From Tubiluchus corallicola (taxonomy: Eukaryota > Priapulida > Priapulimorpha > Priapulimorphida > Tubiluchidae), in assembly GCA_030141605.1 (NCBI GenBank), contig JAQGDQ010000152.1, positions 62,001-126,000 of the forward strand: 64,000 nt of DNA, given 5' to 3'. Positions within the stretch are counted from its first letter, which is position 1; every line of letters starts with the position of its first letter. The position numbers were made by a program, and so were the translations under genes. The notes under the pieces are model-generated. The model was given only the letters and a program-made list of their open reading frames with translations, had not been told where the DNA came from and did no database searches. Positions 7,446-45,240 of this stretch are shown here, in pieces.

Positions 7446-9562
7446 TCATGAGGTCCTCGATGGTAGAAGTTCTCGTAGCCCGTCCTTCTGAGCTTGCGTC
7501 AGATTGTCGGGGAACTTGATGTCGAAGTTGACGATGAGGTCGCCCCTCTTGTGTGACTCCTTCGCTTGTGGAAGACCCCGGTTCTGGATTCGCTTGATGG
7601 TATTGGGTTTGATGACGTCTGTTAGATGAAGCTGCAATTTTCGCCCTTCCAGCGTCGGTATCTGTATTGTTGTTCCTGTTAAGGCCTGGAAAGAAATGAA
7701 ATTTTTTAATTCTAGTTTTGCATTATACAAGGTGCCTTGTACATTGTACAAACAAAATTGCCGTTTAACCTAAGAAAAATTCATTCCCAAAGACGGACTA
7801 GACACAATCTTTTTGGACACACTGTAATCAAGGCTGAAGAAAACAGTGGACTGGCCACAGTATGGGTTTAGCAACTGGGGTGCTAAAGTGAAGTACCGCC
7901 ACACCTGATCTGGATGGGTGACCAACAAGATAACTGCTTTCCACTTGGGTTCCTCATGCTATAGAGCCTACACAGGTATTTTTTCACTGATGGAGTTAAG
8001 TGTACGCATCTAAATGTGGTTATTATACCTCTGTCTACTGGGTGTCTACAAGAACAACATTGATTAACTGGAACAAGGTTCAAAACATTATGACAGGCTA
8101 TATCAGATGGGTCCTGTTGGCAAGTTAGAAGCCGGGTTGCAGAGTGAACAACTGTACAGAAGAAATACACCACACCAGAAACGAGCGAGATCTACAAATG
8201 TCTGAGTGTTATAATGTGTGTTGTCCAGTTACAATTGCATGTACTACCTGTACGTACAAAAAAGTGTTGGAACGGACCATATGCGGGAAACTTATTGTGA
8301 CTAACGAGCCACGATTAATTTGCAAGACCCACAGTAGTGTCAGACCTCAATCAGTGGAACGTACGCAAATAACTAACTGTTATGCATGTACATCAGAAGC
8401 ACATTTTATTCTGTAAAAATAAAAGAGAGTTCTCAAGTCGGTCAAGATCGACAAGTTCAGGCAGTCGCCCCCTCTTCTACTAGCTGAAATTTTCGTAATT
8501 GGCCAGCCATAATATCAAACCTGTATCTGTTTAGTCCATACGATCAACACCTGCCTTTCATAACCTGCCAAGCATAATATCGAACCTGTACCAGTGCAGT
8601 CCATGCAAGCAGCACATACTGAGCATAGACCCACTTGACGTCGCCCTCAAGAAGAGTGGACTGGATAATTTTTTATATGATTTTTCGTGCACGAAAGAAT
8701 TTCGTACATATGCGTAACGCAGGGAAAACGTTAACCCTGATTCTCCGTATTTTAGTAATCAGATTTACCCACTGGTGAGAACAGGTTTTGAAACAGTTTT
8801 ACAATGGCACAGCCATAGCCTAAAGGCTTTGCAAGTTTCGTGCAAGCTAAATTCTCCCAACAGCAGCTTTCTCATAAAACAATGCTTTCTTTGAAATGGT
8901 AGCCTTGAAATGCAATGTTCAAAATTAGAACAAACACTCACTCTTAACAATGTCATTTGCACGAAGAACAATGGCCTTAAAAATTCGAGTAAAATAAACA
9001 CGAGGGTGGTGTTGAAAGTGCTCAGTTGAACGTCAGTTTCACTTCATCAAATGTAATTTTTCTACATATTTTGATAATAAAAACGTAAATAAACAGATAT
9101 ATAAATACTATATATATATATGCGTGTGTGTGTGTGTGCGTGTACTATATATTAAAGTAACATACGGGTAATAATAATCGGAGCCATTTGGAAACAAGTA
9201 TTGGATAACTAAGGTATTACCCTGGACTATGTCCTGAGCGAAATTTATCTATATATTAATATTCTTGGTATATATATATATATATATAAAATTCGAGGCT
9301 ACAGCTTCGACGACGGAACCGTTTGCGCCGATCTATACATCAAACGAAAGGTCTCGATCTAGTATCGTGCCATTGATGGTTTATTTTTCGAATCGGGCCC
9401 ACCGGGAGGAAGGGGGGCGGCGAAAATCCTCCAAAAATGGCCATTTTTCGGCCGTTTTTTGCAAAACTTATACCTCTTATTTCTGAAGAACGGGAATGGG
9501 CCGAGGGTGGTGCTGGCCCATGGATAGCTATGGATAGAGAGCCTGTTCAGCGGTGGGTGTAA

Positions 9563-9620
<58 letters not shown>

Positions 9621-12600
9621 TACATATAAATGAGAAACATCACATTCATAACTCTAGTGCCCCAAGAGAAGAAATTACCAAGACTAGAACTAACTCACTG
9701 ATAACCCAGTTGTAGCAAGAAGCCAGAGCAAGACTAGAGGCTTCCCTGGTGCGTGGCTTCTTTGATGCTCTAGTCTGAGAGCTCTGACACCGATGTTGAA
9801 AAGCATGATAATTAACTACAGCTGCCAGTGACATAAACTAGCGTTTCTTATCATCATGTAAATACTTGTCTACAACATACTGGTACATCCAGGTTAAGAT
9901 TACAGTGATTACTATGCAAGCTGGATTGGCTAGGAAAACTAGGGCAACCAGGACGACCTTGAAAATTCACGTGGAGACAGAAAAGTTCTTTAATTTCGAT
10001 TAACACCAAATTGCAGTTCATGCAATCAAATGAAATAATGCAATAAGTAAACAATAGTTACAAACGTATAAACAAATAGTTACAAACAATTGCTACAAAT
10101 ATATACTATTAAAGAAGTAAAAAACTGCATCTAATACACAGCATGGCAAGGACTAGGACTAAAACTTCTTTATGTCAAATAAACAAATGTGATTTTCCAT
10201 TTAAAATATGATTCCTGTGCTTAAATGACAAAAAAGAGGTGTCTGAAGCTGGTTTCAGAAAAATTACCTTAAAAAATTGTATTACTTTATAGCAATTTTA
10301 TGCGTATATCGTACTAGCGTTGAAAGGATTTCTTGTTTGTTTTCATTTTAAATCTCCCGCAATAATGTTGCGACCGCGCAATTACATGACGTCATACACG
10401 CACAACGTAAATCAGGGGAAGAAAAGGAAATGTTAAATTACGCCCCAAAAAACTTGCCATGCAAAATTACATTACTTTGCATTTCGCTTACCTGTCTGAA
10501 AGACGCATGAAACTAGAAAAGGAAATTATTAATTATTTAAAATGCTTTCACCAATTGATAAAATGTCGCTGACTCACCATCCAGTGCGCACAACTCATTA
10601 ACCAAAAATGTATTTTTAATTTTATTGACAAGATACAATAATTTTATATTTTATTTAGTTGGTGACATGTGCGCTAGAAATTCTCTGATTATTTTTTCAA
10701 AGTTTGCACAATGTAATTTTAGCTTGTTTCAAATGACATATCGTCAAAATGGCTACGTCTAACGGTCATCGCAGGAGTTTATATGTTTTATACAAAGTTA
10801 TTGCCGATGGAGGTCTAATATGCAAAAAGGCAGAACGTAAGTGATATAAAATTTCAAGACGAATTTTTCAAACTTTAAGTTGGTGGAGGGTTTTCTTGCG
10901 CTTTAACAAAGTTTTTGACACCATGGGACTAATTTATAATATCAGTTGAAATGGATTAACTTTACAACAACTTTAGTATGTGGGGTATAACGTATGGGTC
11001 ACAAATTAATTATATGTATTTCCTTTGCTTAACCAGAGCTATCTTTTCATGCACAAAGTATGTACTTTTCTCACAGCATTCTGAAATTTTGTCATTAAGG
11101 TGCTGACACAACTAAACCCGGTCGATGATAGCAGCAAAATACTTGAAACCAGTGTCTCACAAAGGCAAAGACAAATATCAGCACTAACGACTATTTAGGG
11201 ATTTACATTTACAAAAATACAGGTAAAGACACTGGTAAACACAGACCACTTGGCCACCCAACCCAGGACGTCGTGTTCTCGCGGCAGGGGAAAGTTGGTG
11301 AGCAAATGTTCTTGACGTACCCCCTCCCAGCAAAAAAGCCGACGAAAAATCAGTGACCAAATTTAGCGAATTTTGTTGAAAGGCACGAGTTAGTTCACCA
11401 AAGTCAAATGTGTGTCGGAAGTTTGTCAAGGAACTACTGTAGACTCTGACGAGCATCACCGCAGTCTCACACCACCAATAAACACCCTCCCATAAATAGT
11501 TCACAACTTCACAGACACGAGAAGTTTGTTGCCAGCTCGCATCTGCTAACTGGCTTCTTCTGAACAGTATGACGTCATCAGCGGGGCTTCTCTGGTTGCT
11601 TTATGCGTCGGGTAGAATAAACTTGCGTTTTTTTGTAAGGCGCGAGTGTTTCGTAAACAAGATTTTGCTAGTTAAAACATGGACATTGTAGGCAGTTCAG
11701 AGTTTTGTTATGAAATGAATGTTGGGTTAATGTAGAGAGCTGCTGCAACCGCTTCATAGCTTAACTTACATTTGTGAAAAGATTAGTGCATCGTCAATAA
11801 AACTTCAACAATCCTTGCACAAAAATTACAAGTGGTTGGGTTACACTAACCAAACAAAAATTCTAGACGTTTTCTTGTCGTTTTTGCAGCTCAAAAACGC
11901 AGCTGTAAAAGACAAACAAGCAAATTAAAAGAGAAAGTGATTCGGAGGTCACAGGTATTCAGATGAGAAGGGAAAACGACTAAAAACAGCTTTGACGCCG
12001 TATAACCTTGACAGCATACTTCACAACTCTCGCTGCCAGGCTCTGGGCTGCTGCAAACATACTGCATATGGATGCTAACACTATTGTATGACATGTAAAA
12101 GTAAACGTCGTAAGCAATGTTCAGCAACGGCAGCAAACTTCACAACTCTTGCTGCCAGGCACTGGGCTATTGCGCTGCATTCATCGTGCTGCAGACACAC
12201 AGCATAGATGTTAAATACTGCAAGACATGTAAATGTAAACAACACAATGCCTGTTCATTTGCAAGGCTCTAACTTTTTTGATTTTGCTAGTTACTTGTTG
12301 TCTGATCTTGCACGGCGACCAGGTTCGAATGCTGTAGAGACCTAGGAAGAGACGTACTTCGTTCTTCAAATATGCTCTACCAAATTCAAGAAGTTAAATA
12401 AACCTGTGACCGGTGCCAAGGTCGTTTTTTATTAGTGTCCGTATAACGTGATTGTTGCATTTTTTAAGCATTGATATTTCTGCATAAGCTGCAGTAAAAT
12501 TCCTGGGGACCCTGTTGCAGATTTACGTGTGTTATTTTATTGTATCGTATTTATTTTATTCAAATAAATGTTTAACCAAAACGTTTGTTCAGGTCACACC

Positions 12601-15600
12601 AGATACTGAGGGTCTGAAGCTCAAATAATGTCAAGCTTGCAAACAATGTCAAGCTTGCACAAAATGTCAACCTTGTAAAAAGTGTCAAGCTTGCAAAAAA
12701 TGTCAACCTTGCAAAAACTGTCAAGCCTGTAAAAAGTGTCAAGCTTGCAAAAAATGTCAACCTTGCAAAAACTGTCAAGCTTGCACAAAATGTCAACCTT
12801 GCAAAAACTGTCAAGCTTGTAAAAAGTGTCAAGCTTGCAAAAAATGTCAATCTTGCAAAAAATGTCAATCTTGCAAAAAGTGTCAAGCTTGCAAAAAATA
12901 TCAACCTTGCAAAAACTGTCAAGCTTGCAAAATATGTCAAGGTTGCAAAAAGTGTCAAGCTTGCGAAAAGTGAAAAGCTTGCAAAGTTTCAAACTTGCAA
13001 AAAGTGTGAGTATTGTACATGTGACAAAGTATCACCACTACCACCATCACAGTCAATATTTGGTACAGTGATACTTCACTTCCAACGCATGAGATTTCAA
13101 GGAAAAGGAAAACCCACCGCTGGTGTAACCTGCGTTATTAACTAAGCCCAAATAGACCAAAGCACAAGAAACCCCTTTAGTTACATCAAGCTAAAAAAAT
13201 CGTCCTGGAATGTTGTATAATCTATATACAGTACTGTTTTAATGCGCACATGGCTTGTTTTAACAGTAACGCTGTACAGAACTTGAAAATTTAAACTCCC
13301 GCTATGACCGTTAGGCGCAGCCATTTGACTGTAGGTCGTTTTTGAGAGAAGTTTAGATAACATTGCTTAAAGTCTGAAAAAATAATCACAGCATTCGTAG
13401 CATACACTTTAATAACTACGCAATCAAAAGTATCAGTTACTTTAGCTTGTGGTCAATAAGATTAAAAATGCGTTTTTATTCAGTCACTGGTGCACACTGG
13501 GAAAGTGAGTTAGTGAAGTTTTATCAGCTGACGCGAACATTTTAAATTACTAAGAATTTTCTTGTCTACCTTAGCTCTTTCAAACAGGTAGGCGTAATGA
13601 TAATAATAATAATAATATATGACTTTGTGTGGAAAGTTTTTTTGAGATACACATTAAAATTGCTCTTTCTTTCCTCAAAAAGAGAAGGAAATTGCCGCCT
13701 TTGATGTAACTTGTACCGTTAATTAAACCCAAACAAGACTTAATTTGACTTTGCTAAACCCACGCATTTCATGCACGGATACGTCTGCAATTTACCTGCA
13801 TGACCTTGACAATAGCCGCACGCACAGGTAGACTAACTGAATGAGCAGGTGAAAGAGGTGTCCCAGATATAAGACAGCCTCCTCTCAAGTAAGAAAGGAA
13901 CCGCTCTAATTTGAGTAGACGTCTTACTGCTGACCGCATGGCCTACATTTGCACGACAACGAATTTACCTCTCTCTCAAATGAAGAATCTCCTTTGCAGC
14001 AAGGATCTGTGAGACAAACCATTGAAATCTGACAATCGTCTATTTGACGCACGTAATAGAAAAAATAGTATCACCGTACGCAATGCATGAAGATGTAATC
14101 TTACATTGTCTTGATGCTATAATATTAATTTGATTGACTTTGGTTATTGTTAATAATAAAGGCTGGATAATAAAAGGTTTTTATAATTGCAATGAATAAT
14201 GCGCAGTTACGTGTCGTAAAGCATGAAGTCGGATTAATATTAGAGCATTAAAATGTTTGAAATTGCATCCTTTTTACATTTGTAAACTGATAGAGAGATT
14301 CTGATTTAAGTTTATAGTTTAGTTCATTCTTCACATATAGCAAAGTAATTATTTAATAACAATTAACTTCTTTAGGAAGGTAAATAGCGGATTGAAAGTC
14401 TAAATTAAACAAACACGAAGAAAAAAAACGTGAAAAGGAAAAAAACAAACAGAAAAAAGAAAAGAAAAAGAAAAAGTGGAAAAGAAGAGTAGAAGTAGAT
14501 TAAAAAGAAAAGTAGAATGCAAAGAATTCTTAAGCTCTTATCTTGAATGTCAAGCAGCTTGTTCAATTCACTTCAATTTTGTTTACTATGACAAAAGATT
14601 TACCCGCACAGTATAAATGTGTGGCAAAAAAGAGTAGAAAACAATAAAAAGACAGACAACAATAACGAAAATAATAACTTAGAACTAAGAAAACTAAATA
14701 AATTAGGAAAAAGTGAACGAGTGATATTAGTGAAAGAAGAGAAGACGAACTCAGATTTGTTTCTTTCCTTTATATTTACCTTTGTAAAGAGGAATTATGT
14801 ACGTTCTTATTACAAAATAAGATGGTTTATGTTGGTTTTTATGCTGCTAAAATTAAAATGATTGCAATATCACGAACGAGCAGAGTTTTCGTGAATTCTT
14901 CTACGACATTCCACGCATGTATGAGCTTAGCAGCTACAATGAATTGGTTACAAAATTTAGCGCTCTGAACAACGGCATCACAAATAGCGATGGGATCGGA
15001 CATGCGGTCTCCTGATTTGTGATTTAGCAGAGAATAGGCAAAAACCAAATTAAGTTGCATTATTTACACTAGTTACGAGAATTACTTACATTAGATATTA
15101 ATGTTACATTAATAATTGTTATACTAACTATAACGTGATTTTGAGTATATGACGCAGCCTATGAATAATTTGTAAATGAGAGATATGGAACATTTAAAAT
15201 GGAACTGTGATATTACTGCCGTAATGCTACACAATTGTTGCAATAAGGCATTCATTTAATTAAGATTGCGAATAAGCTGTAAAGCCTTTATCACTGCATT
15301 AATAAAGTAAAGTGCTGACTTTAAACTGGACTTCTACAAAAACGTGGAAATTAGGAAAAGAGCAAGCTGTGGGATTTGGACACACCAATGCCAACACTTA
15401 ACGATATCGTTTAACGCCAAGAAACAAGAAAAAAATTTAAGAAATCAATTCACGCAAGAATTTAAACAAGTTAATAAACGAGAGGAAACATTTTAAAAAG
15501 GAGAGGAAACGTGGCAAAGGTTTGAAAGAACTGCAGCGCGTGATGTGATAGACGAATAGTTTTTAAAAAATACCTGAAAGTTCACTCAATAATTAGCAAC

Positions 15601-18600
15601 TGAACACAAGCAAAGCGATCACCTTTTAACCTTTAAACAAGTGAGAAAAGCCGCTTAAGCAATGGAATAAAACTGCTTACGACACGACCTAACGATATGA
15701 AAGAAAGTTTCTCACATAAATCACTCGCTACGTTCGTACAAGTTTACAACCTCAGTCAACAAACCAGACAGGGGTTTAGAACAGCATTCTGAAAAGAAAA
15801 CGAAATTATTGCTGCCCACAAAGGTCTTGATGAGTCGAAAGTCAGTTTAAATTGCATCGATGCGCAAAGTTTAATGTTTGCCGAATTAATTACAAACCGG
15901 AGTGCTAAATCTTGATGTAAGTGGAGCATATGCATTCTGTAACATAAATCACATTGAAATGAACTAGTGCAGATACAGGCTACCGATTGAAATCAAAGCA
16001 CGTAAACGATGGACAAAAACCTGCTCAGTAAGCAAACAAGAAAAGTATCACGCCTAAAGATAAACGATTTTGTACACAATATCACGAAAAAAACTACTAA
16101 AATTTTTAACTTCGTTCAATAAACAACAGCCGTCTTAATTACACATGATGTTAATTTTAAGACTTATATATATAAATTTTACTTATTTTGAGTGGATTTA
16201 CGACACAGTAACTATTACTGATCACAGTATTTCCACTATGTGCAATGAAGAAATACGCAATTAGTTAGTTCGAGTATGTAATAATTTAAAATAGTTAATT
16301 AAAAAATACGACTACTTCACTTAGTTAATACTTAATTGAAGTTTACAAAAAAACCAAACAACAGATATGATAACAGAAACGATTCTCGATGTACATAAGC
16401 CTATAAGCCCATGCAAAATACAAGTTGTACATTGTAATGTACAATGTTGATACTTAATTCAGAAATCATATTATTAAGTTAACAAGTATTAACTAACACT
16501 TATAAATTTTTTGAATCCAGAAAATGCAGCTAAACTTCATCATCGTCCATACAATATACGACATAACTCAGATCTACCAACGCGTAGTTCAAATTCAGGC
16601 ACATGTCAGATTTTTCTACATATCATTCTTCCAGCAACAAACCTCGGGTTGGCTCTATCACAGGTGCCACCTTATTTCTCAATGATTTGAATTCTTAGAC
16701 AATTAGTTGCCCATTGTGCATCAAGACTGGAGCGCACCTCTACTGGAAATTAGTGGAAATGAAACATCTAAAGATGTATTACATACACTCACAAATGGAC
16801 TTGACACCGGCTTCATAAATGGACTTGATACCGGCTTCATAAATGGACTTGATACCGGCTTCATAAATGGACTTGACACTGGTTTCTTTACAAAGTGCAA
16901 GTGATTTCAATGGCTTTTTAATGACGTCACATATCTCACACAAACTCTAGGAAGCGGACAGCAACCAGGAACTGAGTTCAACAGACTGAGTAAATGGGAA
17001 ATAAATTTTGATTTTTCGTAACGGCGATGCGGTGGCAAGATTTAATCCATTAGGACCACGAGCAAACCACTTACTAGACACAATTTCTACGGAAAGAGTT
17101 CCAATTTTTATGAATGGTTAGCAACAGAGATAAAGTATTACATCAATATTACACCAGTGTTACTTAATGAAGCGGCAGACACAGAGACCTGATGTGTCAT
17201 ATATGCCTTCTCACCCCCAGTATTAATTCTGTTTAACTAACGAAACAAATCTTTCAAACTACATCTCTTATGCCTGCACACTATCAATCAGAAGGGAACA
17301 GTGACAGCTTAGGACCACATGGTACATGTTCCCTGAATAATATAAGCATTGCGGCCACCCCGTACGGTGAAATATTATTTTAAAAAGTCTTGCTTTGTAC
17401 ATCTACTTAAAATTTGCAATTAAAATAATTACTTCTACAGTAACTAGAGCATAATGTTAATTGCATACAAGCACCTCAAGGCACATAGGATTGAGTAATT
17501 GATTATCATCTACAATTTACTTCAACGTAAAAAAACATAAAAACATACAATTAAAATTTACATTGCCTAAAATTACACTAACAACACCAAAAGTAAATGA
17601 GCCTGACTCACAAAACATACATGCTTAGTACAAGCACCCACCTGAGAACGTGCCTGACACAGATTTTAACCACTTGAAAAAAGTATCAGGACTGAAAAAT
17701 ATTAAACTGTAACATTCCACGTTGAAAGCAAGAGTTGGCAGTAACCCACAAAACTTATTTCTAAACCATAAACTCGTGTAAAAGTTTGTGCCAAACTATG
17801 AAGATTTACGAGTTTATAGCAGAACTTGCAACTTTCATTATAAACATGTGCAAGGGCGCATAATCAGAATTTCAAACTACTTAGCTTTCAACTATGGCAC
17901 TGAAAACCGGATATCCGGGAGAGTATCCGCTATGTAACATTAGCACAAATGTCCTTTTCGAAGTAAAGTTTTCAGAACTGCATAGAACTACTGTCAGAAA
18001 AACCGTTTCTAGGCAACAGATATCAATAGGGGAAATCTCCTTCCGTTCCCTCCCGTGGAAAATTTCGGGTTTCACGGCGAGGGTAAAGAAACGAAGAAAA
18101 ACGTTTTTAATGGCAAGTATGCATAATTTAGAAAACAATTTTTAAAACATCACTCAAAAACATGGCATCAAAGTCTTTTCCAGGCAACCATAGTTTGAAC
18201 ACGAAATATGGACATAGCTTAAATAATTCTCCCATGGCAACACACTCTTTTAATTTATAGAAAGTTCCCGACTATCTGTTACTAATCTGTTAATAGATGT
18301 ATCTCGTATTAACAATGTATGAATACATCTCCTCCCCGGAAATAAGAATTTAAAGAGATTCGGGCTCTCCGTCCTGACAGAACATCATCAGACCACGATT
18401 ATATTATAATGATCTGCGTGATGTAGGCAACTATTCTGTGCAAATACTTTTTACATTTAAAGTGGCACACTGCCATCTTAACACAGGTTAATCTAGCGAG
18501 CAAGACTGGCCATTTTTTCGAATGATTTTGGTAAATTGCCATCTTGACCACATTATGACCCGAGTACATTTAAACAAACGTCCATTTACAGCACAAACAC

Positions 18601-21600
18601 GCACACGGTCGTAACACATAAGAAATTACTTTCAACAATCTTACAAAAAACGAAACGAACTACAAACAAAATTATCTCCAACTACACAGTACGTGCCACG
18701 AAGACGTTACAGGCTTTATCATCTCTCTCCAGGAAACTATTTACAGCGTGCTAATTACTAGTCTAAATTTACACACATCAACCACAAGGGGTTCTCTTTT
18801 TTGCTCTCACGTAGCTCAAGAAGTCAGTAAACAGGACTGCCCGGGGTAAAGCTAAATTGCAAGTTAATTACTTGGCTGCAATAAGAATGGCAAAGGTGTA
18901 GAATAAGGTCAGTAGTGTGAGTAGCTTAATGAAAATGGAAAACGTGACGCAATTGTTATGATGTGTCCACGCCTAGGTTAACTGTTTTGAATATTCACTT
19001 CTTGTCATAAAATGACATGGATATTATCAGACAACGAAGTCTGTTTTGTGCTAGAGCGAACCGTATTCTTAGAAAATTTCATCATTGTTCACCTAATGTC
19101 AAAACTCATCTGTTCAACTCTTATTGTAGTTCTTTCTACAGTATGGCCACCTGACGACATTTTTATAACTACAGTCTCAGCAAACTTAAAGTAGCTCACA
19201 ATGTTTCAAAACGCAAACTTTTCAAATACCCATATGATTATAGTTCTAGGACCATTTCAGTAGACCACGACGTTTTATACTTTGATGTAATACATAGGAA
19301 TACTGCATACAGTTTACACAGTAGAGTAATGCAAAGTTCGAATCTTCTTATAAAGGCATTGAATAACAGTGACGCATTTTACACTTCAGACATAAGATAC
19401 CAATGGAGGAAAATATTAGGTAGAAATTATGAGTGACGATTTAAGCTGGACGTATGATATTGTATATATATATTGTACTGTTATTTTATTTATTTATGTA
19501 TTAATTTGTATGTGTTGAGAGGAGGGGTTATAATTATTGTATGTCTTGTAATTATTGTATGTTATGTATTCTATGAACCTAGTTCGAAACAAAGAGTTAA
19601 ATCAAATCAAATCACTCAGCAATCAAAACCTTCCAATAGCACTAGAAACTCATGGAAGAAGTCTGTCGTCATGCGAGTCGAAGAACCATTAGCCAGAAAT
19701 AAAAGATTAGACTTAGTTTTAAACGCTTCTGTTTTTTTTTCACTTAAAGGCATTCCTGATTAGCAGCAGAAAAGCTAGGAGAACAAACAGTAGCAGTAAA
19801 ACGGTAATTGTGGGAAATGCTGGAGGGAAAAATTGACCACAGTTATAAAAATACAGGAAAGTGTAGCACATGCTGTTAATCTGCTTAAAAAGTGCACACA
19901 GAAATCACATCTAAACTACGCTGATTACATGCTGTTAATCTGCTTAAAAAGTGCAAACAGAAATCACATCTAAACTGCGCTGATTACATACTGTTTTAAT
20001 AGGGAAGTACTTATGTATCCGAAGTGCTGAATTATTCGAATCTATAATTTTAGATTCAAATCAAATTCGACCTAAAAAAAACTCATTTGAATTCGATTCG
20101 AATGTTCGATGCTCAACCCTACTCGATATGAAAGCGGCTTGACAGCTGCATTCTGTGAAATTGACAGTGTTAGTTCACAGGAAAGTGGGTTCTGCTTGGA
20201 AAGAAAACAAGATTGAACGATCTTACTGCCTTTGGTAACTTGGCAAAGCTTTGAAGTCAGGAAAAGGAAAGGTAATCAAAGCCATCGATATAAGCAAGCT
20301 GTTTTAGAATCTTGAAATTTAACAGGAGATTGTCTTGAAATACTTTTTACACCAATTTGTAATCGAAGGAAATCGTGAATCCATCAAATTTAGCGTTAGG
20401 GTTAGATTTAAATTGCCGTAAAACCCGGAAAAATTGTCAGGCTCGCATGGGTTTCGCAAGCTGAAAGTTAAGGTTAGTAAATGGATGGGTGAAGCATGGT
20501 GAATGTGTGGACGCTCAATTATTATCCATCCAAAGGAAACATACAAGGTTTCAGGAATAAACGTCTGTGCCTGATCTTGAACCAAATCAATGAAACAAAG
20601 CGTAGCTTAATAAATTTCTCTACCACTTCATTTGACAAGAGGACAGAACTGGATGCAAACAATTGGTAAACTAATTATTCTATAATTAATTATTAAGTTA
20701 ATTATTCTATTAATGAACAAGAACAAGGTAAAGAACAGCACAAAATCAACTGAAAGGCCTGTGATCACTAATCAAGGATGCTACAGAAAGTGAATTTACA
20801 AACCGCAATCAAAATTTATGAAACATCTAGGGAACTGATAACAAATCGACACAATTTTTGCAAAACCAACCACTATTAAAGCTTAAAAAAGGAAAATATT
20901 TTGTTTGTCTGCTTTTATTTGCTGTGATGCAAAATTACTGATAAAAATTCTAATACAAAAATGACAAGGAAGTTTTATAGTATGGAATCTCAAGTTTGAT
21001 GGAGCGGCTTACCTTAGAAAATGTGTTATAATGTTTTTGGATTTAAGTATCCTTAATGATTAATGTGTAAGGACTATAACGCTTCATTAAAAATAAACAA
21101 ATTTGATTTTACAGATACTTTGTTGCCTATATTTCATAAATTATAAAGTGAAATTTGATTTTGCTCAAGTAAATTCAAACGTGGTTTCATATTTCGGCTG
21201 ACTGGGATTGAGATCCTAAAACTTCACAGTCGTCAGCAGTGAAGATATGCCGCATTGCCGGTAAAAGCACGTCACAAACTGTTATAAAAACGAAATTTGC
21301 ACTTTATTTGAACTAATTTAGCCAAGATCTTTCAGCAGTTTTTGACATCTAGAGAAAAAGAAAAGGTAAGTTGGATAAATACTAGCAAAACTTCGGAAAA
21401 ATTGTACCGAAAATTGTCCGAAATTTCGGCTACGAAATTTAGTAAATTTTGCCAAAACCGAAAGTGCAATTAGCGGCAAGCCAAAACGAAAATTTGCTTT
21501 CGGTAACATCCCTGACTGCAATACGAACATACTGTTTCACTTTGAGCTGAAATGTAAAAAATCCAACTTCTACACAAGGACAGATTTTTGACCATGGCCA

Positions 21601-22557: not shown

Positions 22558-22616
22558 TCTACAAAAACACAAACATTCATTTAGTGCACAGCAATTTTAG
22601 GCAGACATAATTTGTC

Positions 22617-30133: not shown

Positions 30134-30242
30134 GTACATTTATTTAATCAACTGTACAAAATAAAGGCAATATATATATACATATTTATATATATGTATA
30201 TATATTGCCTTTATTTCGTACAGTTGATTAAATAAATGTGTA
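30134..30242. repeat. Near-perfect ~109-bp palindrome
   Basis: Left arm ATTTATTTAATCAACTGTAC then AAAATAAAGGCAATATATAT is mirrored in reverse complement on the right with very few mismatches, meeting in an AT-rich centre. It would form a long cruciform or hairpin. It is probably a small palindromic transposon remnant. Confidence 0.85.
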
Positions 30243-35132: not shown

Positions 35133-38100
35133 ATGGAGGTAATTTTTTACCAATGCCAATTGCTATTTTTTTACTAATGCTATTTATAGAAAGAGAGGTT
35201 AAAACTGAAATAGATACTATGACAAAATTAAGATTTTTAAAAAACAGAACTTTCCAAAGACAAATGTATGTCGAAAATGTAGGTTAGACGAAATGAAAAA
35301 TATTATGTCAATTAGACTTTATATGATAGATGTTAAAGCAAATTTCAAAAATCTGTATAAAGGGGATCTTAAGTTAAAATTAAAAGTTAAATGTTCTCTA
35401 TGTCAGGTAGCAGAGGATACTACTGAGCATCATTTTGAATGTAAAGCTGTGTATATCAACAAGTTAGGCATATCTGCGCAAGATATAAGTGAACGGAACA
35501 TAAATAAATTACTACTGACTAGGATGTATGTTAACGAGCTGTTGAAGCTAAAATAAGTAAAAATATAATTAAAGACGAGTGAACAGTAAAGGCAAATTGA
35601 TGTCAAAGATATTTGGTGTGATTTGTAAATCAAATTGATTGTGTTGTTGATCTCGCAAACAGACACTTTTTATTGATGTCTGTTTGCTCGCCGCTGGTGG
35701 CGAAGAGGATCGAGCATATCCACAGTACAATAATAATCTAGTTATACACTGTTTTTGTGATGATTGTTATTAACTGTCACTTTAAGGTTTTTACTAGTTC
35801 GAGTCAGAAATTGTATTGATTAGTGATAAAAATATCTATTTTTAGGTAGTTGTAAAACACTGCAAATCACAAGCGATTATAACGACGCTTAGGCATGTAA
35901 GTATGCCTGTAATTAGTATCGAATTAATTAACGTGTACTGTCATAAAAATTTTGTGAAAAGTAAACATACTCTGTAAGCTGCACCATTATTGATAGTCTT
36001 ATAGTTGACCACTGACTTTTTTCAGTCTAACCTCTTTATACTACTTTATTTAGGACTGCAAAAAAGTTCGCATTGAGCGAGTATGGCTTTTTGAAGAGGT
36101 GTACTAATTGATATTCAATTTTTCTCTTCGTCTTACATTAATATTAATACAGTACATTATATAATCATTGATTAACAAACAGAGATGGGGTGGCGAAAGA
36201 CCAAAAAACACGTATACGCGTTTGATAACGCGTATGTATTTACGCAAATACAGTTATTTCCTTTCGCCAAATATATGGGTGTTAAGCAAGGTTAAATCTT
36301 TGTTAAATATTAATAAACTAAAAGTTTCTAATTTGTTTGTTTTTTAATTACTAGAGCTTTTTAATTACTAAAGAACTAATTATGTCACGAGTAATACAGG
36401 TAGCCTTCAAGTTCCTTGAGCCAGGTACCAATTAGCGAGAAAACTTGCTCAGAATCAACGATTAAATGTGAAAAACTCCAGGGCATAATTTTAAATTAGG
36501 GACAGTGGCTTAACATTTTGCTCATAGAGAACAAAATTTAATTCATTACATACTTGATAATCAGAGCATCTTTTGTAAGTTAATGTGTGACACTGTTAGT
36601 TCCTAAGGTTTCAAAGCAAAGCTGAGATTTCCTAATTGAGCACTAAAATGATTTATTTGGTTTTGATACAGCTTCCGAATTTGTTCCATATTTGTGTGGC
36701 AATTGGCCAAGCATGGCATCAACCATGATGATTGTGTTGACATTATAATTTTTGTATCATGTTTGTTGCCTTATCCTTTGCGTATCTGATGTACTTGATG
36801 ACTACTTCATCATTCACGACTTTAACTTGTAGAACGTTTCGTATTATTTTAGCTTTCGGCACAGTCTACCATTCTTGAACTGAAGAAATCTTTTGTCAAA
36901 CAGGGAAAAAAGCTGTCGCTGAATCGGTTGTCCTTCCGCCTAGAACCAAGTACAATTTTCTTCTTTTTTTGTCATTGATGTTCAATTGAGAACTTGAGAC
37001 AGACGTGTTAACATGTTAGTGGTCTCTTTAAATTCTCATGTGTCTGTGTTCTTGAAGTTAGTCAGGTCCCGGCCTCTTTCTCTATTCTTCTTACCATTAT
37101 CTCCATTCATTTATCTTTATTATCACCATTAGCATCAATTAATTATCATTGTCGTCACCATCACCATTGTCATCAGCATTAATATCACCATCGTTGTCAT
37201 CATTATCATCGACATCGGCATTTTGTTTGCTGTTTACTTTGCTCCATTTAACGTCTTTTTTAGTTGTTGTTTATATCATTAATTTAGTCTTATCCATGTT
37301 GAGCGTAGCTCATAAGGTAATTTTTTCTGCTGTGCTCATAGCACTGTAATGCGCTGTTAATTAGTAATTTTATAACTTTTTTTGGTATATGCTAAATGGA
37401 TGAATAAATAAATCTAAATCTTCTTCTTTTGTCTACAAACTTATTACCACAAAACTTGCAAAAGGGTTTTGAAAATTAACGAAATGTTGCTCAAACGTTG
37501 TTTTTTTTTAATTTTAGCATGAACTTATTCGATGCAGAATTTTTTTAGTGACCTTGTATATCTATCGTTGCTTGTATGCATAATCCCGTGATTTATAGAG
37601 CAAATATTTTCAGTATCATTTAGTTTGTCACAGTAGTGATGTTTAAATCATTAATTGAATTGTTTAGTTTATAACTGAGCAGACGCTAATTTTCAAAATT
37701 TCCAAGCATCTATTTTAAATGTGATACTTGGCAAAAAAACATTTCGTTCTTTCAGGAATCTTTAAAGAATTGGGAATTGGTTTTGTCTGTTTCTGATAGT
37801 TGAACGCAAGACGCACATTTTTCAAGTTTGAGTGATGAGGAACGATTAAAAAATTGCAAGATAAAAAAGTTGCACGGCTCTTGTGAAAAAGTACAACAAT
37901 GCAACGACTCGAAACTTACAGAAATGACTTAGGCAAAGTGACTAAATTGTTTGACCAGTGACAACAGTTTGAAAATTAATTCAACTGCTGACCAAGAGGC
38001 ATTTATGATTCAGATTTTCTTCATCTTTCCAGGAGGACGATCGCTGAAGGACGAAGAAACGTTGCACTCGCTTCGCATTTCTTCCGGAGCTGAGCTCTTC

Positions 38101-41100
38101 TTTAAAGATTTAGGACCCCAGATCAGTTGGAAAGGAGTAAGTAGAAGCAAAGGTTAATTGTTTTTAGAATTTTCATGTTTAGTATGCTTAGTATTTTGTG
38201 GAAAAAAAATGAAAAATTTACAGTTTATTACCTATTGCAAGCTGTTGAATAATGTTAATGCAATTTTTGCATCCAAAATTTGTTTACTCACTGATCTAAA
38301 TTTTGAAGGATGTCTTCCGTAATTTAATGATTATGATCAAATTGAATAGCAAAATTACTCTAGTTCTATAGATTGCTAGCAGTAGTAGCTGTAAACACAC
38401 AATCTAAAACCTATTCATACTCTACTTGTAAACTTCTTTTTTCACTTAAGCTTGATAGCACTTGTTGGGCTTGGGTGGGTGTATAGCTGAGTGGTTACGG
38501 TTTGTTGGTGGCTGCAAAAGTCAGATAGCACGGAGCCTGAGTAGTAGTTGCCGGAGGCTGGCAATTTCCAAAGCAGAGTGTTAAAATTTACTAGCTCATG
38601 CTAGGTAACTTGTTTACACAGTTTAAGTTTCTTCTAATATTTTTATTTGTCTAAACAGCTTCACTGTTGTACATTCATGCAATTGTTGCTCTCTAGGTGC
38701 GGCAGAGCCATAAAATTCGCTTATTTATCCCTTGTAGCAGGATGTAAATTTGGTCTAATGTCTTTGTTTGTTGGATAAACTACTTCTTTAATAAAACTTT
38801 AACTTGTTTTAGACCAAAATATCCGACATACAATCTAATATATAGCATTTCCTGAAAGAACTGGTGTTATTTTAACAACCAAAAGTTCAAAATACACAGT
38901 CAAACAGAACTTTTTGTTTTATTTCAGGTTTTTTTGCTGGAGTATGCAGGGCCACTGTTTATTTATTTAGCGATATATTACTTCAAACCACAATTTCTAT
39001 ACGGACCAGCACACGATGACCCACGCTTCCTAGTTGTTCAGTAAGTGTTCACGTGGCTTTGTTCATTGCCAGTTGTTCAGTAAGTGTTCACGTGGCTTTG
39101 TTCCTTGCAGAATAACTAGCTAAATGCCCGCCAACATTACTTATTCCGACTAACGGTGAGCCTTGCAATATCTTCCTGTAATTCTTTCCTCAAATCACCT
39201 GCAAGTTCTCCCTCTCATTCTAAAGTGACATCTACTTTTAGCTTTTTACACTGTATCACTTAGTGAAGTTATTGCTTGAGTATCATCAACGTGAAATAGG
39301 GATTAGAACGTATATGCATTAGAGTCGAGCATCAAACGTTCGAATTCAGTTCAAATGAGGTTTTTTTAGGAAAAATCATGGATTCGAATAACTTAGCACT
39401 TCAATTACAGTGTTCCCTCACTGTTTCGCGGGTTTTCAAAAATATTATTTCGCTGCTTCGCGGGTTTTTGCGGTCTTAAGAATTTTTGTACATGCGTAGT
39501 ACGTATTGTACAGTAACGAATCACAGAATGTATAAAAATATATTAAAAATATTAATTCTAACATCAAAAGAATATTATGAATCATAAAAAAATACCATTT
39601 ACAGTAAATAGTGTATTTATTTGGCAGATAAATACACACCGAAAATGAAATGTAGTACCTGCGCCCACCTAGTACTACGAAGTAGGGACACTAATAAGTA
39701 TAGCGTCCCAACTTCGCGGAAATTCACTTATCGCGGGTGGGCATGGAACAGAACACCCACAATAAGTGAGGGAACACTGTGCATATGTTCTTTATCGCTT
39801 GAAAAGTCCTACAATTTTAACTGTGGAACAAAATCCAGTAATATACACTCGTGTCCCGGTTTGCCGGACAAAAGCGGGGCGGGGAGACATCGATCCACGT
39901 TTACCAATTGTCTGTATGTACCGATACAGTAGGTGCCATGTGTTAGACTCACAATAATGTAGAATCAATTGCCTATGTCTCAAAAATGTCTTGCCCTATA
40001 CAAAAGTATATAAAAACTGTCACAGTTGACTCAAATAACTCTGCTTAATTGTCTCCATATTTTTACATATAGACATATACACGTGGTTAAACTGATGTAA
40101 TGATGTGAACAAAGTGACAACCCGCCAACTAGCGGTCAGCTTTTGAAACAACAGACTGTGTCCTTAGTATGCGGAACTTTTTAACGGTCCAGATTTTGCC
40201 CAATTCTCCCGATATCCGTAAAAGCGATGTCCGGCAAACCAAGATGTGACCGTACACGATCTTTGTGAAATTGCCTTTTTATTAGCAATTCGAAAATGTT
40301 TAAAACTGAATTTGGATTTGAAAATGCTGAAATTCGGTGTGATTCAAGTTCAAAACCCGCAAATTTGATCTGATTCAATTTCACTTTGTGTGATAGAATG
40401 CTCATCCCTAATGTCTGGGCTCTTTAAGTACTTTCTCATATTGTAGATCTGTCTTTTTTGTCCTCAGCGCAATTAACATTCATTTTTTAGCATCGCAGCT
40501 GCCTGCTGGACATTCCATTATGCAAAGAGGCTGCTGGAGACTTTATTCGTTCACCGATTTTCTCACGCAACCATGCCGATTGCAAACCTTTTCAAGGTGG
40601 GTAAATAAACGAATAAAGTTATCCTACTGTAATCGTATTTGCTTTGGTAATTAGTGAATTCCGAGAAACCAATTAGTTAGTTAACTAATTGGGTTTAATT
40701 GGTGCAAGTTGCTTTACAGAGCCATGTCACCTCAGTAATGTTTGCTCTTTCTTTACTTATTACTGACATGACTAATAGTCCTTTGTTTTTCTTATGTTTC
40801 ACTTGTTGTAAGATGGAGGCCTGCCGGTTTCTTCGAGGACTAAGTGTTATTATTTGGGATTTTTAAGTGACCTCTTTCCCATGATCCCAAAGATTTACTC
40901 AACTTTGGGAGGGGGGAAGTAAACATGAAAATCAGATCAATTCAAAATAAGGCAAGGCATTTTATTGTGTTGTAATTCTTTTGTCTGATTTTGCTGTGTG
41001 TTATAACTGCATTTAGTTGTCAAACTTATTTGACAGTATATATGTTTGTACACACTTCTGTTCGTTTGCTTTTGTTAATATTTATTTTTTATTTGTGTTT

Positions 41101-44100
41101 CAGAACTGTAGTTATTATTGGGGATTTGCAGCCATTATAGCATATTTTATTAATCATCCGTTTTACACAAATCCTGGTACGTGTAGTTTCGCTCTTTCTT
41201 CTTTCCCGCTTGTGAGTGTAATTAGTTTTCACTTTTTTAAAATCTCTAATTAATCATTTAACTAATTTAGTTTAAATTAATTACTTTATTATTAGAACAA
41301 TCAGTCACATATACAGTCAAGCTCTTATATCCGATGTCCCTTATAGCTGAAGTTGAGTCAGACCGAGGGTGTATCTAGACCTGTACTTTTACCCACATTT
41401 TTATGGATTATTGCTACACATTCAGTGTAGACGGTATGTAGGAAGCTCCTTCGGTGAAGCAAGATGTATTTGACCATGGAAACTGAGCTGTTCGAAGGCC
41501 AAATTTGTGAAAAATTGAAATTAAAAATCTATCAATTTTGCTTTGATCATAGGGTCCCGTATATGCGAGGTAATTTACCTGGGTTTCTATTACGCGGGAC
41601 CTGAAGATATCGTCCCTTAGAACCGAATACCATATATACGAAGATTTTTACATAGGAAAACCGTTACGAAAAATCTGGACCGGTGTTGGTGGTCCCTTAT
41701 AAGCGAGTACCTTATACCCGAGGTTGACTATATCAGTTTTCTAATAACAATCACAAATGAAAGTCTTCCCAGATGTTGGTCCACCTTTCTTGAACTTTGA
41801 TACATTGTAAACTTTGCTGCAGCACTCATCGGTGGACCAGCGAGATTAGATCCACTTCATTATTAACGATAATCTTCTAAAATAAAATATAAATCTACAC
41901 AGATATCTTAGCCAAATCTAGATGCACAATCTGGAAATTACCCAGTTACCCTCCCACAATTTGGAAATTACCCAAGGGCAGCATGATAAGCCACCCAGAG
42001 GCAGGTATTCGGGTTCCTAAGTTACACTATCCATCATTTGTTGACATAAGCAACTGCTGCTGCTGCTGCTTAATGGGCTTATATTAGTAAGGAACGTGTA
42101 AGTGAAATCAGTAGCGCTATGGTATTCACTCTGCGTGTACTTAACTTTATGACTTGTTGCTATGAAAACAAACTAGCATACTACTATGATTGTACAAGTA
42201 ATTTTACTTGAAATTTGTAACGCATTGCTTTTATCTTTTACTTAACATTCACGTTTGGCACTGAAAGTACTTTAGCAATAATATATATTCAGTAGAACAC
42301 GGAAGTAAGCTAATCTATTATATTACTGTTAGTGATACCTCTTTTTGTTTATTAAAACTTGACAAAAATTGTTTAACAACAATTATTTAACAATTTTTTT
42401 TAAAGTTTTACCTATTTTCAGCTTTTACTTGGCAGATAAACTTGGGCTTTTTCGGGATGATGGTGAGTTTCATTTTTTTAAATTGTGCCATCAGCAAATG
42501 CGTGTCAGTTTCTCCATAACAGTTGCTCATCAGTAGTTGATATTCTAGAATTTCGCATTCATAACTTGCAGTTCTCAAAAATTATCTGCCTTTTCTGATC
42601 CGTCTCTCACTGCAATGAAAATATTTATAACTTAAGATTACTGTATATACTTATGTACAAGTCGAATTTTTGGGAGGCGATTTTAAGGTGAAATTTTTGG
42701 GGTCGACTTATACTTAAGATATGTTTTTGGGAGATGACGCTAAAGAGTCGTCTACAATACGAATATGTAAAGAAATAATCCTTCATTATATGCTGGACTG
42801 AATGAACACTCATGCTGTGATACTTCACATCAGAGAATATTCGTATCTTAACATTACTTCACAAAATTAACAAATATTACAGTAATTTATTTTAATGTAT
42901 GTGAAATTAAGTTAAAATTTATATATTACCGGTAAATAAACTAGCGGCGGAGCACTCGATCAGAACATGGAAATCGCCAATGTTGTGCAGGTGCTGCCGC
43001 TTGTCGGCTTCCGCAGGGAAGTTTTACACTGGCCTTGTATATGAGTGTTTTATTGGCAAAATATCGATTACCAGCACACACGCGTATGTAAAACACAACT
43101 ATGCAGAGGTATTAATGTTAGTAAAATTTTTTTTCTTCAATTGTTGACATCATTTACTCTGGAAGATCTTAATATTTTATGGTCGACTTGTACACAGGTA
43201 ATATATAAAATGATGCAAATTTTGGTCTTGAAATGCACATCGACTTGTGCATAAGGTCTACTTGTACACAGGTAAATACGGTAATTGGCAGCTTACGATT
43301 GTTTTTTCCCTAGTAACATGGGCCCAAGGCTGGCCGTGCAATTAAACACAGTATGCCATATTTCGCAGCCTCTTTATTTCAAATCAGAATTTTGTAACAT
43401 AGTTTTTGAGTAATGCGACTTACATCTAATCCCTCCTTAGTATGCAGTATCGATCTGTGAATTTTTTGTTGCAAAATAAATGCTGAGATTTAGTCTACAA
43501 CTATTAGTCTTTAAAATGGATTGCGGATACAGCCGGCAAAAAATCAAGTTATTAGATCTTCTCATACGTTCGGTTGATTAAGGTTTGTTTCACATTCCAA
43601 ACCTTTTACAAAAATTGTGGAAACTGAAACTCTTTAGTTTCACTGAGGACTTGAGCTTTAACCATGAAAATAAAATGTTTTAAATGTGGTAATGGTAAAT
43701 TCTTGTAACGGAGCAGTAAATTCTTTCTGAACTTTTGTGTTTTCTTGCATCAGTTCAATGAATTTGGTAATCTGTCCATCCACGTCACCTTGCGGAATCT
43801 TCGACCAGCCGGCACTAAGCAGAGGAAGATTCCAGAACCGACGTGGAATCCATTCACGTTGCTGTTTGCATTCGTATCGTGTCCCAACTACACTTACGAA
43901 GTGGGAGCATGGTTGTGTTTCACAGTGATGACCCAATGCGCAGCAGGTATGGCTTATTAGACATAGATTAGCTTCTATTGCTCACCTGTATTTTGCGTAA
44001 GTGGTCAAGCCACTTATGTAGACAGTTTACTATTGGTGTAGATTACTGTACTTATCCAAATCATGCTATTTTGTATTCAGTATGGCATTTAGCAGTCCAT

Positions 44101-45240
44101 GTATGAGCTTACTTATTAAAAGAAAACTGGACGATTGTGTAAACATTAGTTCAAAATAAAGTATGCTCTAAAACATTGAAACTACAATATCTTTTTTAAA
44201 TCAAAGCTTAGATTAAGTAATATTTACCTTGGTTACTCAAATTTTATTAAGCTTTTACAGCTATGCACGGCTCTCAGCAAATCCACTAAGATTGCTAGTG
44301 GTGTCTTTTTGTCATGTTCGTGTCACTGACAAATAGGCACGGTACCGTTGTAAACATGTTCATGAACTGTAGTGTTCGTCTATGATGTCACAGTGACTTA
44401 GAGCTCATTTTCGTGACATCACTTCAGCATGTTATAGCAATCTTCGTTTATGCAAACCTGCTTGATGCACAGGGAAGATGCCTACCATTGCACAAACTGT
44501 GGTTAGTTTGTGATGTAAGCGATATCTGTTTGGTTGCTCTTAATAAGTTTCCAAAGTTATTGTTCAAATATTAGAAAGAATTGCTAACCTTTGTAGGCAA
44601 GAAATGTATATTTTGCATACTAAATTAAAATGAGATTGAGTCTAATCAATCGTCTAGTTATCCTTTAAGTTTTAATAGTTGTGGCATAATTGGAAGGTTG
44701 CTCATTTTTGTGCATCATTTTTCTGCGATGAACGTACACCAAAAGGATGTGTTTTAAGAATCTTTGAATGTATATAGCCTATGTATAAATAGAGGCACTT
44801 TTCTTAGCTACCACTCATCCATTTACTATCATGCCCTATGTTGCTGAACTTTGTGATCGTTAGATTCTGTTGTCTTAACTTGATAGCATGATGAGCTCAA
44901 CTGCCTACAAGCTTTTGGCTTTTCCTTTAAGATGAACAGCTGTCTGTTGTTTATGTTGTTTTTGCAAATTGTACAGTGCCAATCGTGCGGAAAGCTGAAT
45001 AAACAAACAGTATGGTTATAATACAACTGCCAAGGTGTTGTTAGAAAGCAAATAGTTGGGTTGTTATAAAGGATAAATTTTCTCATGAGTACCTATATAA
45101 ACTTTTTTGCAGCTGCAATATTCGCGGTGGCTGGATTTGTGCAGATGACGATTTGGGCTCTGGGAAAGCACCGAAATTACAGGAAAGAATTTCAGAATTA
45201 TCCCAGGAACCGAAAGTCCATCATCCCATTTGTGATATAA
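35133..45240 (+). CDS. TECR: Very-long-chain enoyl-CoA reductase (trans-2,3-enoyl-CoA reductase)
   Basis: ER-membrane enzyme that performs the fourth and last step of very-long-chain fatty acid elongation, NADPH-dependent reduction of trans-2-enoyl-CoA; it also serves sphingosine degradation. Ten exons: 35133-35138, 35846-35896, 36853-36949, 38033-38136, 38928-39040, 40491-40596, 41104-41176, 42422-42462, 43754-43946 and 45113-45240. All have AG/GT borders and phases that join into about 303 residues (human protein 308). An N-terminal ubiquitin-like region ([22 protein letters not shown]) is followed by the steroid 5-alpha-reductase-type membrane domain: [59 protein letters not shown] and [12 protein letters not shown]. 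The KR pair and the Tyr in NYTYEVG correspond to residues reported as essential in yeast Tsc13. The first coding exon is only six bases (ATG GAG) and is the least certain; its position, donor and fit to the family N-terminus support it. TECRL is the alternative paralogue in vertebrates. Confidence 0.95.
35219..35556 (+). mobile_element. LINE 3' fragment with C-terminal CxxC-H-C motif, in TECR intron 1
   Basis: A frame from 35219 reads [20 protein letters not shown] and, after a frameshift before 35284, [20 protein letters not shown], then [21 protein letters not shown], an IRL-M block and a C-x2-C...EDTTEH-x3-C motif form the usual C-terminal tail of reverse transcriptase ORFs in many non-LTR elements. 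The remnant ends at a stop at about 35554-35556. It lies in TECR sense orientation inside intron 1 and is too short and broken to be active. Confidence 0.65.
38462..38580 (+). mobile_element. Possible tRNA-derived SINE remnant in TECR intron 4
   Basis: GGGTGTATAGCTGAGTGGTT matches a pol III A box (TAGCTGAGTGG) in tRNA-like context, followed about 45 bases later by GGAGCCTGAGTAG, a poor B box. More GC-rich than its flanks. It cannot fold as an intact tRNA by eye. Confidence 0.35.
39032..39109 (+). repeat. 39-bp tandem duplication across the TECR exon 5 splice donor
   Basis: Two copies of a 39-bp unit beginning AGTTGTTCAGTAAGTG (39032-39070 and 39071-39109) differ at very few bases. The first contains the true exon 5 end and donor at 39041; the second carries an identical donor at 39080. 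Reading through the first donor meets a TAA immediately, so use of the second donor would truncate the protein. Confidence 0.93.
39320..39405. repeat. TTCGAAT-rich dispersed repeat, copy 3 (inverted)
   Basis: Reads in reverse complement as GAAGTGCTAAGTTATTCGAA, matching copies at 20036 and 28204. It abuts the pogo-like element that begins at 39408. Confidence 0.55.
39408..39779. mobile_element. pogo/Tigger-type non-autonomous element in TECR intron 5
   Basis: Inverted termini CAGTGTTCCCTCACT at the left and AGTGAGGGAACACTG at the right are perfect over 15 bases, with the inner TTTCGCGGG/CCCGCGATA blocks typical of pogo/Tigger elements. It is preceded by TA; the right-hand TA has been lost. 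Length is 372 bp, with no transposase frame. Confidence 0.9.
39844..40254. mobile_element. Second pogo-like non-autonomous element in TECR intron 5
   Basis: The ends share GGTTTGCCGGACA in inverted orientation (39858 and about 40240), inside roughly 25-base imperfect termini bounded by TA. It sits 65 bases beyond the preceding element. Termini are too diverged to define the exact edge. Confidence 0.7.
41314..41730. mobile_element. pogo/Tc1-type non-autonomous element in TECR intron 7
   Basis: Begins CAGTCAAGCTCTTATATCCG and ends CCCGAGGTTGACTA, an inverted pair of the CAGTCAACCTCG-TTATAAG type seen in pogo-like elements. Flanking TA dinucleotides at 41312-41313 and 41731-41732 give the expected target duplication. 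Length is 417 bp. Confidence 0.85.
42641..43281. mobile_element. pogo/Tigger-type non-autonomous element in TECR intron 8
   Basis: Left end CTGTATATACTTATGTACAA with AGTCGA; right end read inward CCGTATTTACCTGTGTACAA with AGTAGA. Termini match over nearly 30 bases and are flanked by TA on both sides (42639-42640, 43282-43283). Length is 641 bp. The internal region has a GC-rich patch (GCCGCTTGTCGGCTTCCG) but no transposase. Confidence 0.88.
44120..44664 (-). mobile_element. TTAA-flanked MITE family, longest copy (TECR intron 9)
   Basis: Ends AAGAAAACTGGACGATTG and, inverted, AGGATAACTAGACGATTG, with perfect TTAA at 44116-44119 and 44665-44668. Length is 545 bp, in opposite orientation to the copies at 58659, 60303 and 62462. 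TTAA duplication is characteristic of piggyBac, but the termini do not start with the usual CCY triplet, so superfamily is tentative. No transposase frame. Confidence 0.85.

What the first reader, a model, noticed from the sequence alone, without database searches (positions are those of the whole stretch)
7446..45240. Divergent DNAJB-TECR pair with AP-1 mu nearby mirrors human 19p13
Seen: a minus-strand DNAJB1/4/5-type gene lies directly left of a plus-strand TECR, with AP-1 mu 3.8 kb beyond DNAJB. Known to me: human DNAJB1 (minus) and TECR (plus) are adjacent head-to-head neighbours on 19p13.12, and AP1M1 lies on the same chromosome arm. Inference: this is retained microsynteny, possibly with a shared regulatory domain, across a very deep animal split. 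DNAJB acts in proteostasis and TECR in ER lipid synthesis, so any reason for linkage is probably regulatory.
Basis: partly seen in the sequence, partly recalled or inferred. Interest (0 to 1): 0.72.

Follow-up and report, generated by a model that had tools for sequence, protein, structure and literature searches.

The report
Divergent DNAJB and TECR gene neighbours
Two ordinary animal genes, a heat-shock helper (DNAJB) and a lipid-making enzyme (TECR), sit side by side pointing away from each other as they do in humans, which is probably an inherited arrangement but could still be coincidence.

Summary
In a bilaterian genome, AP-1 mu (+) ends at 3643. A DNAJB1/4/5-type gene (-) follows, with its stop at 7446. 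TECR (+) ends at 45240. A six-frame Pfam scan of the gap found nothing. Human 19p13.12 lists GIPC1-DNAJB1-TECR-NDUFB7 in that order (strands recalled).

Only the pair is shared: GIPC and NDUFB7 lie on other contigs here, and the other neighbours (RRN3, PTDSS) are not 19p13 genes (recalled). The two genes' known coding parts are 10-14 kb apart, so no compact shared promoter is shown, and heat-shock elements are not enriched. let-7 is present, so this is a bilaterian. The tree does not resolve the gene within the DNAJB1/4/5/13 group; the genome's own DNAJB13 is elsewhere. A second DNAJB1/4/5-type copy (C744) has no TECR beside it.

New: an upstream exon (26444-26742, -) splices in frame to DNAJB and has a probable counterpart in the paralogue, suggesting an N-terminally extended DNAJB.

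Retention from the bilaterian ancestor is favoured, but the odds fall to about 1.4-8:1 if genes shuffle within ancient linkage groups. No other animal genome could be searched.

The parts
1..3643 (+). 3' part of AP-1 mu (AP1M); the gene starts left of the window at about C1730:55951
   Evidence: tblastn of recalled human AP1M1, PF00928 hits, TAG at 3641-3643
7446..7685 (-). last coding exon of DNAJB (DnaJ_C end, TGA stop)
7686..21762 (-). 14-kb phase-0 intron of DNAJB; same place and phase as in the C744 paralogue
   Evidence: splice sites read
21763..22558 (-). main DNAJB coding exon (J domain with HPD motif, G-rich linker, first part of DnaJ_C)
26444..26742 (-). probable upstream coding exon of DNAJB, 99 codons plus 2 bases (phase 2), splicing in frame to the acceptor just before the MGKD start: an N-terminal extension
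   Evidence: no Pfam domain
35133..35138 (+). speculative TECR first exon end (ATG GAG then GTAATT, phase 0) in a CpG-rich stretch; not supported by homology
36853..45240 (+). TECR, seven exons found: 36853-36949, 38033-38136, 38928-39040, 40491-40596, 41104-41176, 43754-43946, 45113-45240 (TAA). The N-terminal ~22 residues and about residues 188-203 were not found
54865..64000 (+). PTDSS (phosphatidylserine synthase), running out of the window to about C1730:132300; start by eye from the ORF list

Best explanation
These are two apparently intact, unrelated genes: a class-B Hsp40 co-chaperone of the DNAJB1/4/5 type and the very-long-chain enoyl-CoA reductase TECR. They are direct neighbours transcribed away from each other. 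The arrangement was most likely inherited from the bilaterian ancestor and kept in the human lineage as DNAJB1-TECR. If it was kept for a reason, the likeliest is that breaks in the region between the two 5' ends are disfavoured because it holds promoters or enhancers of one or both genes, including the promoter of an upstream DNAJB coding exon. Shown here: gene identity, order, strands, no recognisable gene between them. Inferred: common ancestry of the linkage and any regulatory reason. AP-1 mu, RRN3 and PTDSS are bystanders.
For: Gene models. No Pfam match in any of the six frames of 22601-37602, at E 0.01 for two frames and 0.05 for four. Human order GIPC1, DNAJB1, TECR, NDUFB7 (PMC3363957, passages). 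TECR looks single-copy: of the 5 Steroid_dh matches two are this gene, and the loci of the other three, C386 and C2022, match recalled TECR only weakly and look SRD5A-like by eye. The DNAJB copy beside TECR has the shorter branch of the two paralogues, 0.28 against 0.52. A whole-genome shuffle gives about 1.5e-4 for this head-to-head pair (assuming 20,000 genes and 3 x 2 co-orthologues).
Against: If genes shuffle only inside about 24 old linkage groups the chance rises to about 3.6e-3, and the odds for retention fall to 1.4-8.3:1 (the priors 0.5-3% are my assumption). PMC8851819 (section 5 part 1 read) found that vertebrates lost 84% of bilaterian-ancestor blocks, and that the vertebrate ancestor inherited 70 blocks against 110-124 in shuffled genomes. 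GIPC and NDUFB7 are not on this contig. The second DNAJB copy has no TECR beside it. No heat-shock element enrichment (26 matches against means of 22.2 and 23.1). Searches for published DNAJB1-TECR synteny found none.
Confidence: 0.62

Rival explanations
1. Coincidence: the pair formed independently here and in vertebrates, helped by both genes lying in one ancient linkage group whose genes reshuffle locally.
For: Within-group shuffle gives about 0.4% per named pair, and many pairs and windows were presumably looked at. Flanking human genes are not shared. Inherited blocks in the vertebrate ancestor were fewer than in shuffled genomes (PMC8851819).
Against: Adjacency, lack of an intervening recognisable gene, and orientation all match. 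Chance over the whole genome is only about 1.5e-4.
Confidence: 0.32
2. A true bidirectional-promoter pair: one short shared promoter fires both genes.
For: Divergent orientation; recalled closeness of the human 5' ends. A one-mismatch heat-shock element lies at 26896-26908, about 155 bases upstream of the exon X ATG, but at background density.
Against: Here the nearest known coding parts are 10.1 kb apart (26742 to 36853), or 8.4 kb even with the speculative TECR exon 1. There is no shared CpG-rich core and no heat-shock element cluster.
Confidence: 0.04
3. The upstream exon at 26444-26742 is not part of DNAJB but a separate small gene between DNAJB and TECR, so the two are not strictly adjacent. 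(This concerns the exon only and is not exclusive of the readings above.)
For: It is an open ORF from ATG to TAA with coding-like GC3 of 0.576, and no RNA evidence is available.
Against: Donors in phase 2 and an acceptor giving an in-frame join to DNAJB both here and in C744, where a reciprocal-best ORF lies upstream on the same strand.
Confidence: 0.15

Closest known systems
Human GIPC1-DNAJB1-TECR-NDUFB7 stretch at 19p13.12
   Same: DNAJB and TECR are adjacent, with opposite strands (strands recalled)
   Different: GIPC and NDUFB7 are on other contigs here; the flanks are AP1M, RRN3 and PTDSS
Conserved ancestral microsyntenic pairs (Irimia et al. 2012, not held; seen as cited in passages of PMC5429095)
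   Same: two unrelated neighbouring genes shared between distant animals
   Different: presence in several phyla and shared enhancers not shown; neither gene is named in the main text of PMC5429095
Bidirectional gene pairs with start sites under 1 kb apart (definition as in abstracts listed)
   Same: divergent orientation
   Different: known coding starts are several kb apart here; real start sites unknown
Longer DNAJB isoforms with upstream 5' exons (human DNAJB5; recalled, not tested; one search listed no paper on it)
   Same: upstream exon adding residues before MGKD
   Different: no sequence comparison could be made

Membership tests
DNAJB1/4/5 (class B Hsp40, Sis1 type) | N-terminal J domain with HPD motif | tested here: met
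   PF00226 99.4 bits; HPDKN read directly
DNAJB1/4/5 (class B Hsp40, Sis1 type) | G-rich linker and DnaJ_C without the zinc-finger region | tested here: met
   PF01556 on both exons; no cysteine in either exon's reading; C-terminal domain best matched to human DNAJB1, 217 bits against 181-193 for DNAJB13
DNAJB1/4/5 (class B Hsp40, Sis1 type) | falls in the DNAJB1/4/5 clade in a tree | tested here: inconclusive
   8 sequences: window and C744 group apart from the rest (41.2/66); DNAJB1/4/5 with DNAJB13 47.3/58; human DNAJB1/4/5 together 95.8/91 without the window gene. The genome's own DNAJB13 (C2286, partial) pairs with the PDB DNAJB13 at 100/100. Human DNAJB1/4/5 and Sis1 letters were recalled
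TECR | ubiquitin-like N-terminal part followed by a membrane steroid-reductase domain | tested here: met
   exon-by-exon match along recalled human residues 23-308 except about 188-203; PF02544. First ~22 residues not found
AP-1 mu | closest to AP1M among mu subunits | tested here: inconclusive
   six of eleven blocks over 90% identical to recalled human AP1M1, which is high, but AP2M and other mu subunits were not compared
conserved ancestral microsyntenic pair | neighbouring and same orientation in distant animals | tested here: met
   this genome against the human gene list; human strands recalled; two species only
conserved ancestral microsyntenic pair | retained in several phyla | not testable with these tools
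   no other animal genome was reachable with the tools
conserved ancestral microsyntenic pair | more often adjacent than chance | tested here: inconclusive
   odds 33-200:1 against whole-genome shuffle, 1.4-8.3:1 against within-group shuffle, on assumed priors
conserved ancestral microsyntenic pair | shared enhancers or chromatin contact | not testable with these tools
   no chromatin data
bidirectional promoter pair | start sites under 1 kb apart | tested here: inconclusive
   known coding starts are 10.1 kb apart; true TECR start not found

The most novel reading that the evidence does not exclude
DNAJB-TECR is an unreported bilaterian-ancestral gene pair, held together because the 5' region of a long, N-terminally extended DNAJB form (upstream exon 26444-26742, with a probable counterpart in the second DNAJB copy) lies in the shared gap and is needed by both genes.
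Probability: 0.15. Interest if true: 0.5.

Novelty: new member of a known kind. Interest (0 to 1): 0.27.

Why it matters
If the pair proves common across bilaterians it adds one more case to the old gene neighbourhoods that survive without an obvious functional link. It would be a useful one because DNAJB1 is heat-inducible and TECR is not known to be (both recalled), so shared control could be tested directly. The upstream exon would add a long form of a much-studied co-chaperone. If it is coincidence, nothing new follows.

Tried and rejected
Shared heat-shock control: GAANNTTCNNGAA and its inverse, up to 1 mismatch, gave 26 matches each against means of 22.2 and 23.1. The nearest to the MGKD start is at 23341 (0.8 kb upstream); one at 26896-26908 lies about 155 bases upstream of the exon X ATG, and one lies inside exon X (26548); all three have a mismatch. 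Shared CpG-rich promoter: within 22001-38000 the 400-base bins with o/e above 1.2 are the DNAJB exons (22001-22400, 26401-26800) and 28001-28400, 34801-35200 and 36001-36400, with no common core. A full CRE at 34948 is one of six in the window, so it is not special. A bacterial promoter scan was run for completeness and means nothing here.

TECR first exon: two scoring scans found nothing above noise. ATG GAG|GTAATT at 35133-35138 is a guess from position only.

DNAJB13 instead of DNAJB1/4/5: rejected, because the genome has its own DNAJB13 on C2286 and the window protein keeps HPD.

Sponge or cnidarian source: unlikely, let-7 found at 62.5 bits; the COX1 search meant to name the phylum found no match.

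Wider 19p13 synteny: GIPC on C531, NDUFB7 on C713; RRN3 left of AP1M; PTDSS right of TECR. Of the 489-kb contig, C1730:2001-206000 was looked at, mostly through ORF lists that were cut by length or score; the rest was not looked at beyond the family searches.

Exon X against the whole genome by protein search: only itself, plus four matches at E 0.5-3.1; the C744 copy was not recovered, which counts against a strong homology claim.

(PDB search of an AP-1 mu flank) was aimed badly and told nothing. Papers: searches (519 papers, 25 listed; 5 papers, one then seen in passages; 7; 8; 3) were seen as listings only and held nothing on this pair in titles or abstract starts; (4 papers) led to passages in PMC5722932 and PMC3636041 that give no count of such pairs.
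Full report
What is there. The window is C1730:62001-126000 of an unnamed 343.5-Mb assembly in 2344 contigs and has no N. Four genes were recognised in it: AP-1 mu (+, ending at 3643), a DNAJB1/4/5-type gene (-, stop at 7446), TECR (+, stop at 45240) and PTDSS (+, from about 54865 and out of the window). Coordinates, strands and the 3.8-kb gap in the finding are right. Seven TECR exons have AG/GT borders (the last ends at its stop) and join in frame in two runs; the first 22 or so residues and about residues 188-203 were not found.

Between DNAJB and TECR. All six frames of 22601-37602 were scanned with Pfam with stops read as X: no match at E 0.01 for two frames and none at 0.05 for the other four. 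The scan is blind to short exons: it also missed the TECR exon at 36853. By eye some ORFs there look like retroelement remains (23974-24309, 35209-35556). The known coding parts are 14.3 kb apart, or 10.1 kb with the upstream exon.

Which DNAJB. The window protein matches human DNAJB1 better than DNAJB13 over the C-terminal domain (217 against 181-193 bits) and keeps HPD. Taken whole, the PDB DNAJB13 chains rank first, because the DNAJB1 entries are pieces. It is 59.1% identical to recalled DNAJB4, 58.8% to DNAJB5, 54.0% to DNAJB1 and 47.6% to DNAJB13. A DNAJB13-like gene lies on C2286 and groups with the PDB DNAJB13 at 100/100. The eight-sequence tree does not resolve whether the window gene and its paralogue sit inside a DNAJB1/4/5 clade: as drawn they lie outside a DNAJB1/4/5 plus DNAJB13 group, with supports of only 41-47/58-66.

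A second copy. C744 carries a gene 59.1% identical over 320 aligned residues, with the same phase-0 intron after the matching Glu. A TGF-beta ligand lies about 4 kb beyond it. None of the 5 Steroid_dh hits is on C744. Only the window copy, with the shorter branch, lies next to TECR.

An upstream exon. A minus-strand ORF at 26742-26444 ends at a donor AA|GTATGT in phase 2. The main DNAJB exon begins after the acceptor TTTTTGTAG with one base before ATG, so the join is in frame and gives a 444-residue protein. In C744 an ORF at L003 2803-3035, upstream on the same strand, ends at CAG|GTAATA in phase 2 and joins in frame to TTTTCAG|GACGATCATGGGG. The two ORFs share a local score of 52, reached by 0.5% of 2000 shuffles, whose highest score was 59. 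Each is the other's best match: 1st of 1749 ORFs of 40 aa or more in the 25 fetched loci (next 44), and 1st of 2293 in the window plus loci other than L003 (next 50 and 49); ORFs with over 25% of one residue were dropped beforehand. GC3 of the window exon is 0.576, like the main exon at 0.596; in C744 the values are 0.364 and 0.336. Against this, a genome-wide protein search did not recover the C744 copy, and there is no RNA. I put the exon at about 0.8 and shared ancestry of the two at about 0.75.

How old is the split. let-7 scored 62.5 bits, above its cut-off of 53.5. A bantam hit scored 55.9 against a cut-off of 61. That let-7 marks bilaterians and bantam protostomes is recalled. The animal is taken as a bilaterian and probably a protostome. 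The comparison with human therefore spans at most the protostome-deuterostome split, not sponge or cnidarian.

Is the linkage inherited. PMC3363957 lists human genes in the order GIPC1, DNAJB1, TECR, NDUFB7 (passages seen). Here GIPC is on C531 and NDUFB7 on C713; these contigs could still lie on the same chromosome. To the left of AP-1 mu lies RRN3 (360 bits); to the right of TECR lies PTDSS. By my recall their human orthologues are on 16p13 and on 8q22 or 11p15. The shared unit is thus the pair alone, with AP1M1 merely on the same human arm. A simple estimate gives 1.5e-4 for a chance head-to-head pair over the whole genome and 3.6e-3 within one of 24 linkage groups. With assumed priors of 0.5-3% for retention, the odds are 33-200:1 and 1.4-8.3:1 respectively. 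PMC8851819 (section 5, part 1 read) reports that vertebrates lost 84% of bilaterian-ancestor blocks and that the vertebrate ancestor inherited fewer blocks than shuffled genomes give, which calls for caution. Those are blocks of three or more genes, not pairs.

Mechanism. No evidence of shared control was found: heat-shock elements are at background, though one imperfect copy lies about 155 bases upstream of the exon X ATG, and no shared CpG core was seen. If there is a constraint, I think it most likely lies in regulatory DNA between the two 5' ends. This is inference.

Literature. Searches for DNAJB1 with TECR and synteny, GPSN2 with DNAJB1, and TECR with microsynteny found no paper. Irimia et al. 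2012 is not held, so its pair list, which might contain this pair, was not checked. PMC5429095 (passages) cites 80 such units in Amphimedon, 60 of them confirmed; its main text holds 0 occurrences of either gene name, and its supplementary lists were not seen. PMC8851819 likewise holds 0.

Verdict. A correct observation with a plausible but unproven interpretation: a probable new member of a known kind, of modest interest.

Noticed in passing
26444-26742 (-) and L003 2803-3035 (+): Probable upstream coding exons of both DNAJB copies, sharing a motif around VKKQAK, that would add about 78-100 residues before MGKD.
   Followed up: partly
L012 1815-2693 (-) and C1730:181332-182180 (+): TGF-beta family ligands lie near both DNAJB copies (about 4 kb beyond one, about 93 kb from the other), but in different relative order; possibly coincidence in a large family.
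   Followed up: partly
46761-47564 and 12622-13007: Long minisatellites: 39-bp unit x 20.7 and 18-bp unit x 21.6.
   Followed up: no
G000 C969:115270-116028 (-): An AP mu-type gene with the whole domain in one 427-codon frame, i.e. intronless over it, unlike AP1M on C1730.
   Followed up: no
G000 contigs C1605, C20, C188, C31, C93: Uninterrupted full-length DnaJ_C hits in open frames of 378-419 aa that could be bacterial contigs in the assembly.
   Followed up: no
G000 C2022:12124-12600 (+), L011: An intronless 331-codon steroid 5-alpha reductase-like frame.
   Followed up: no
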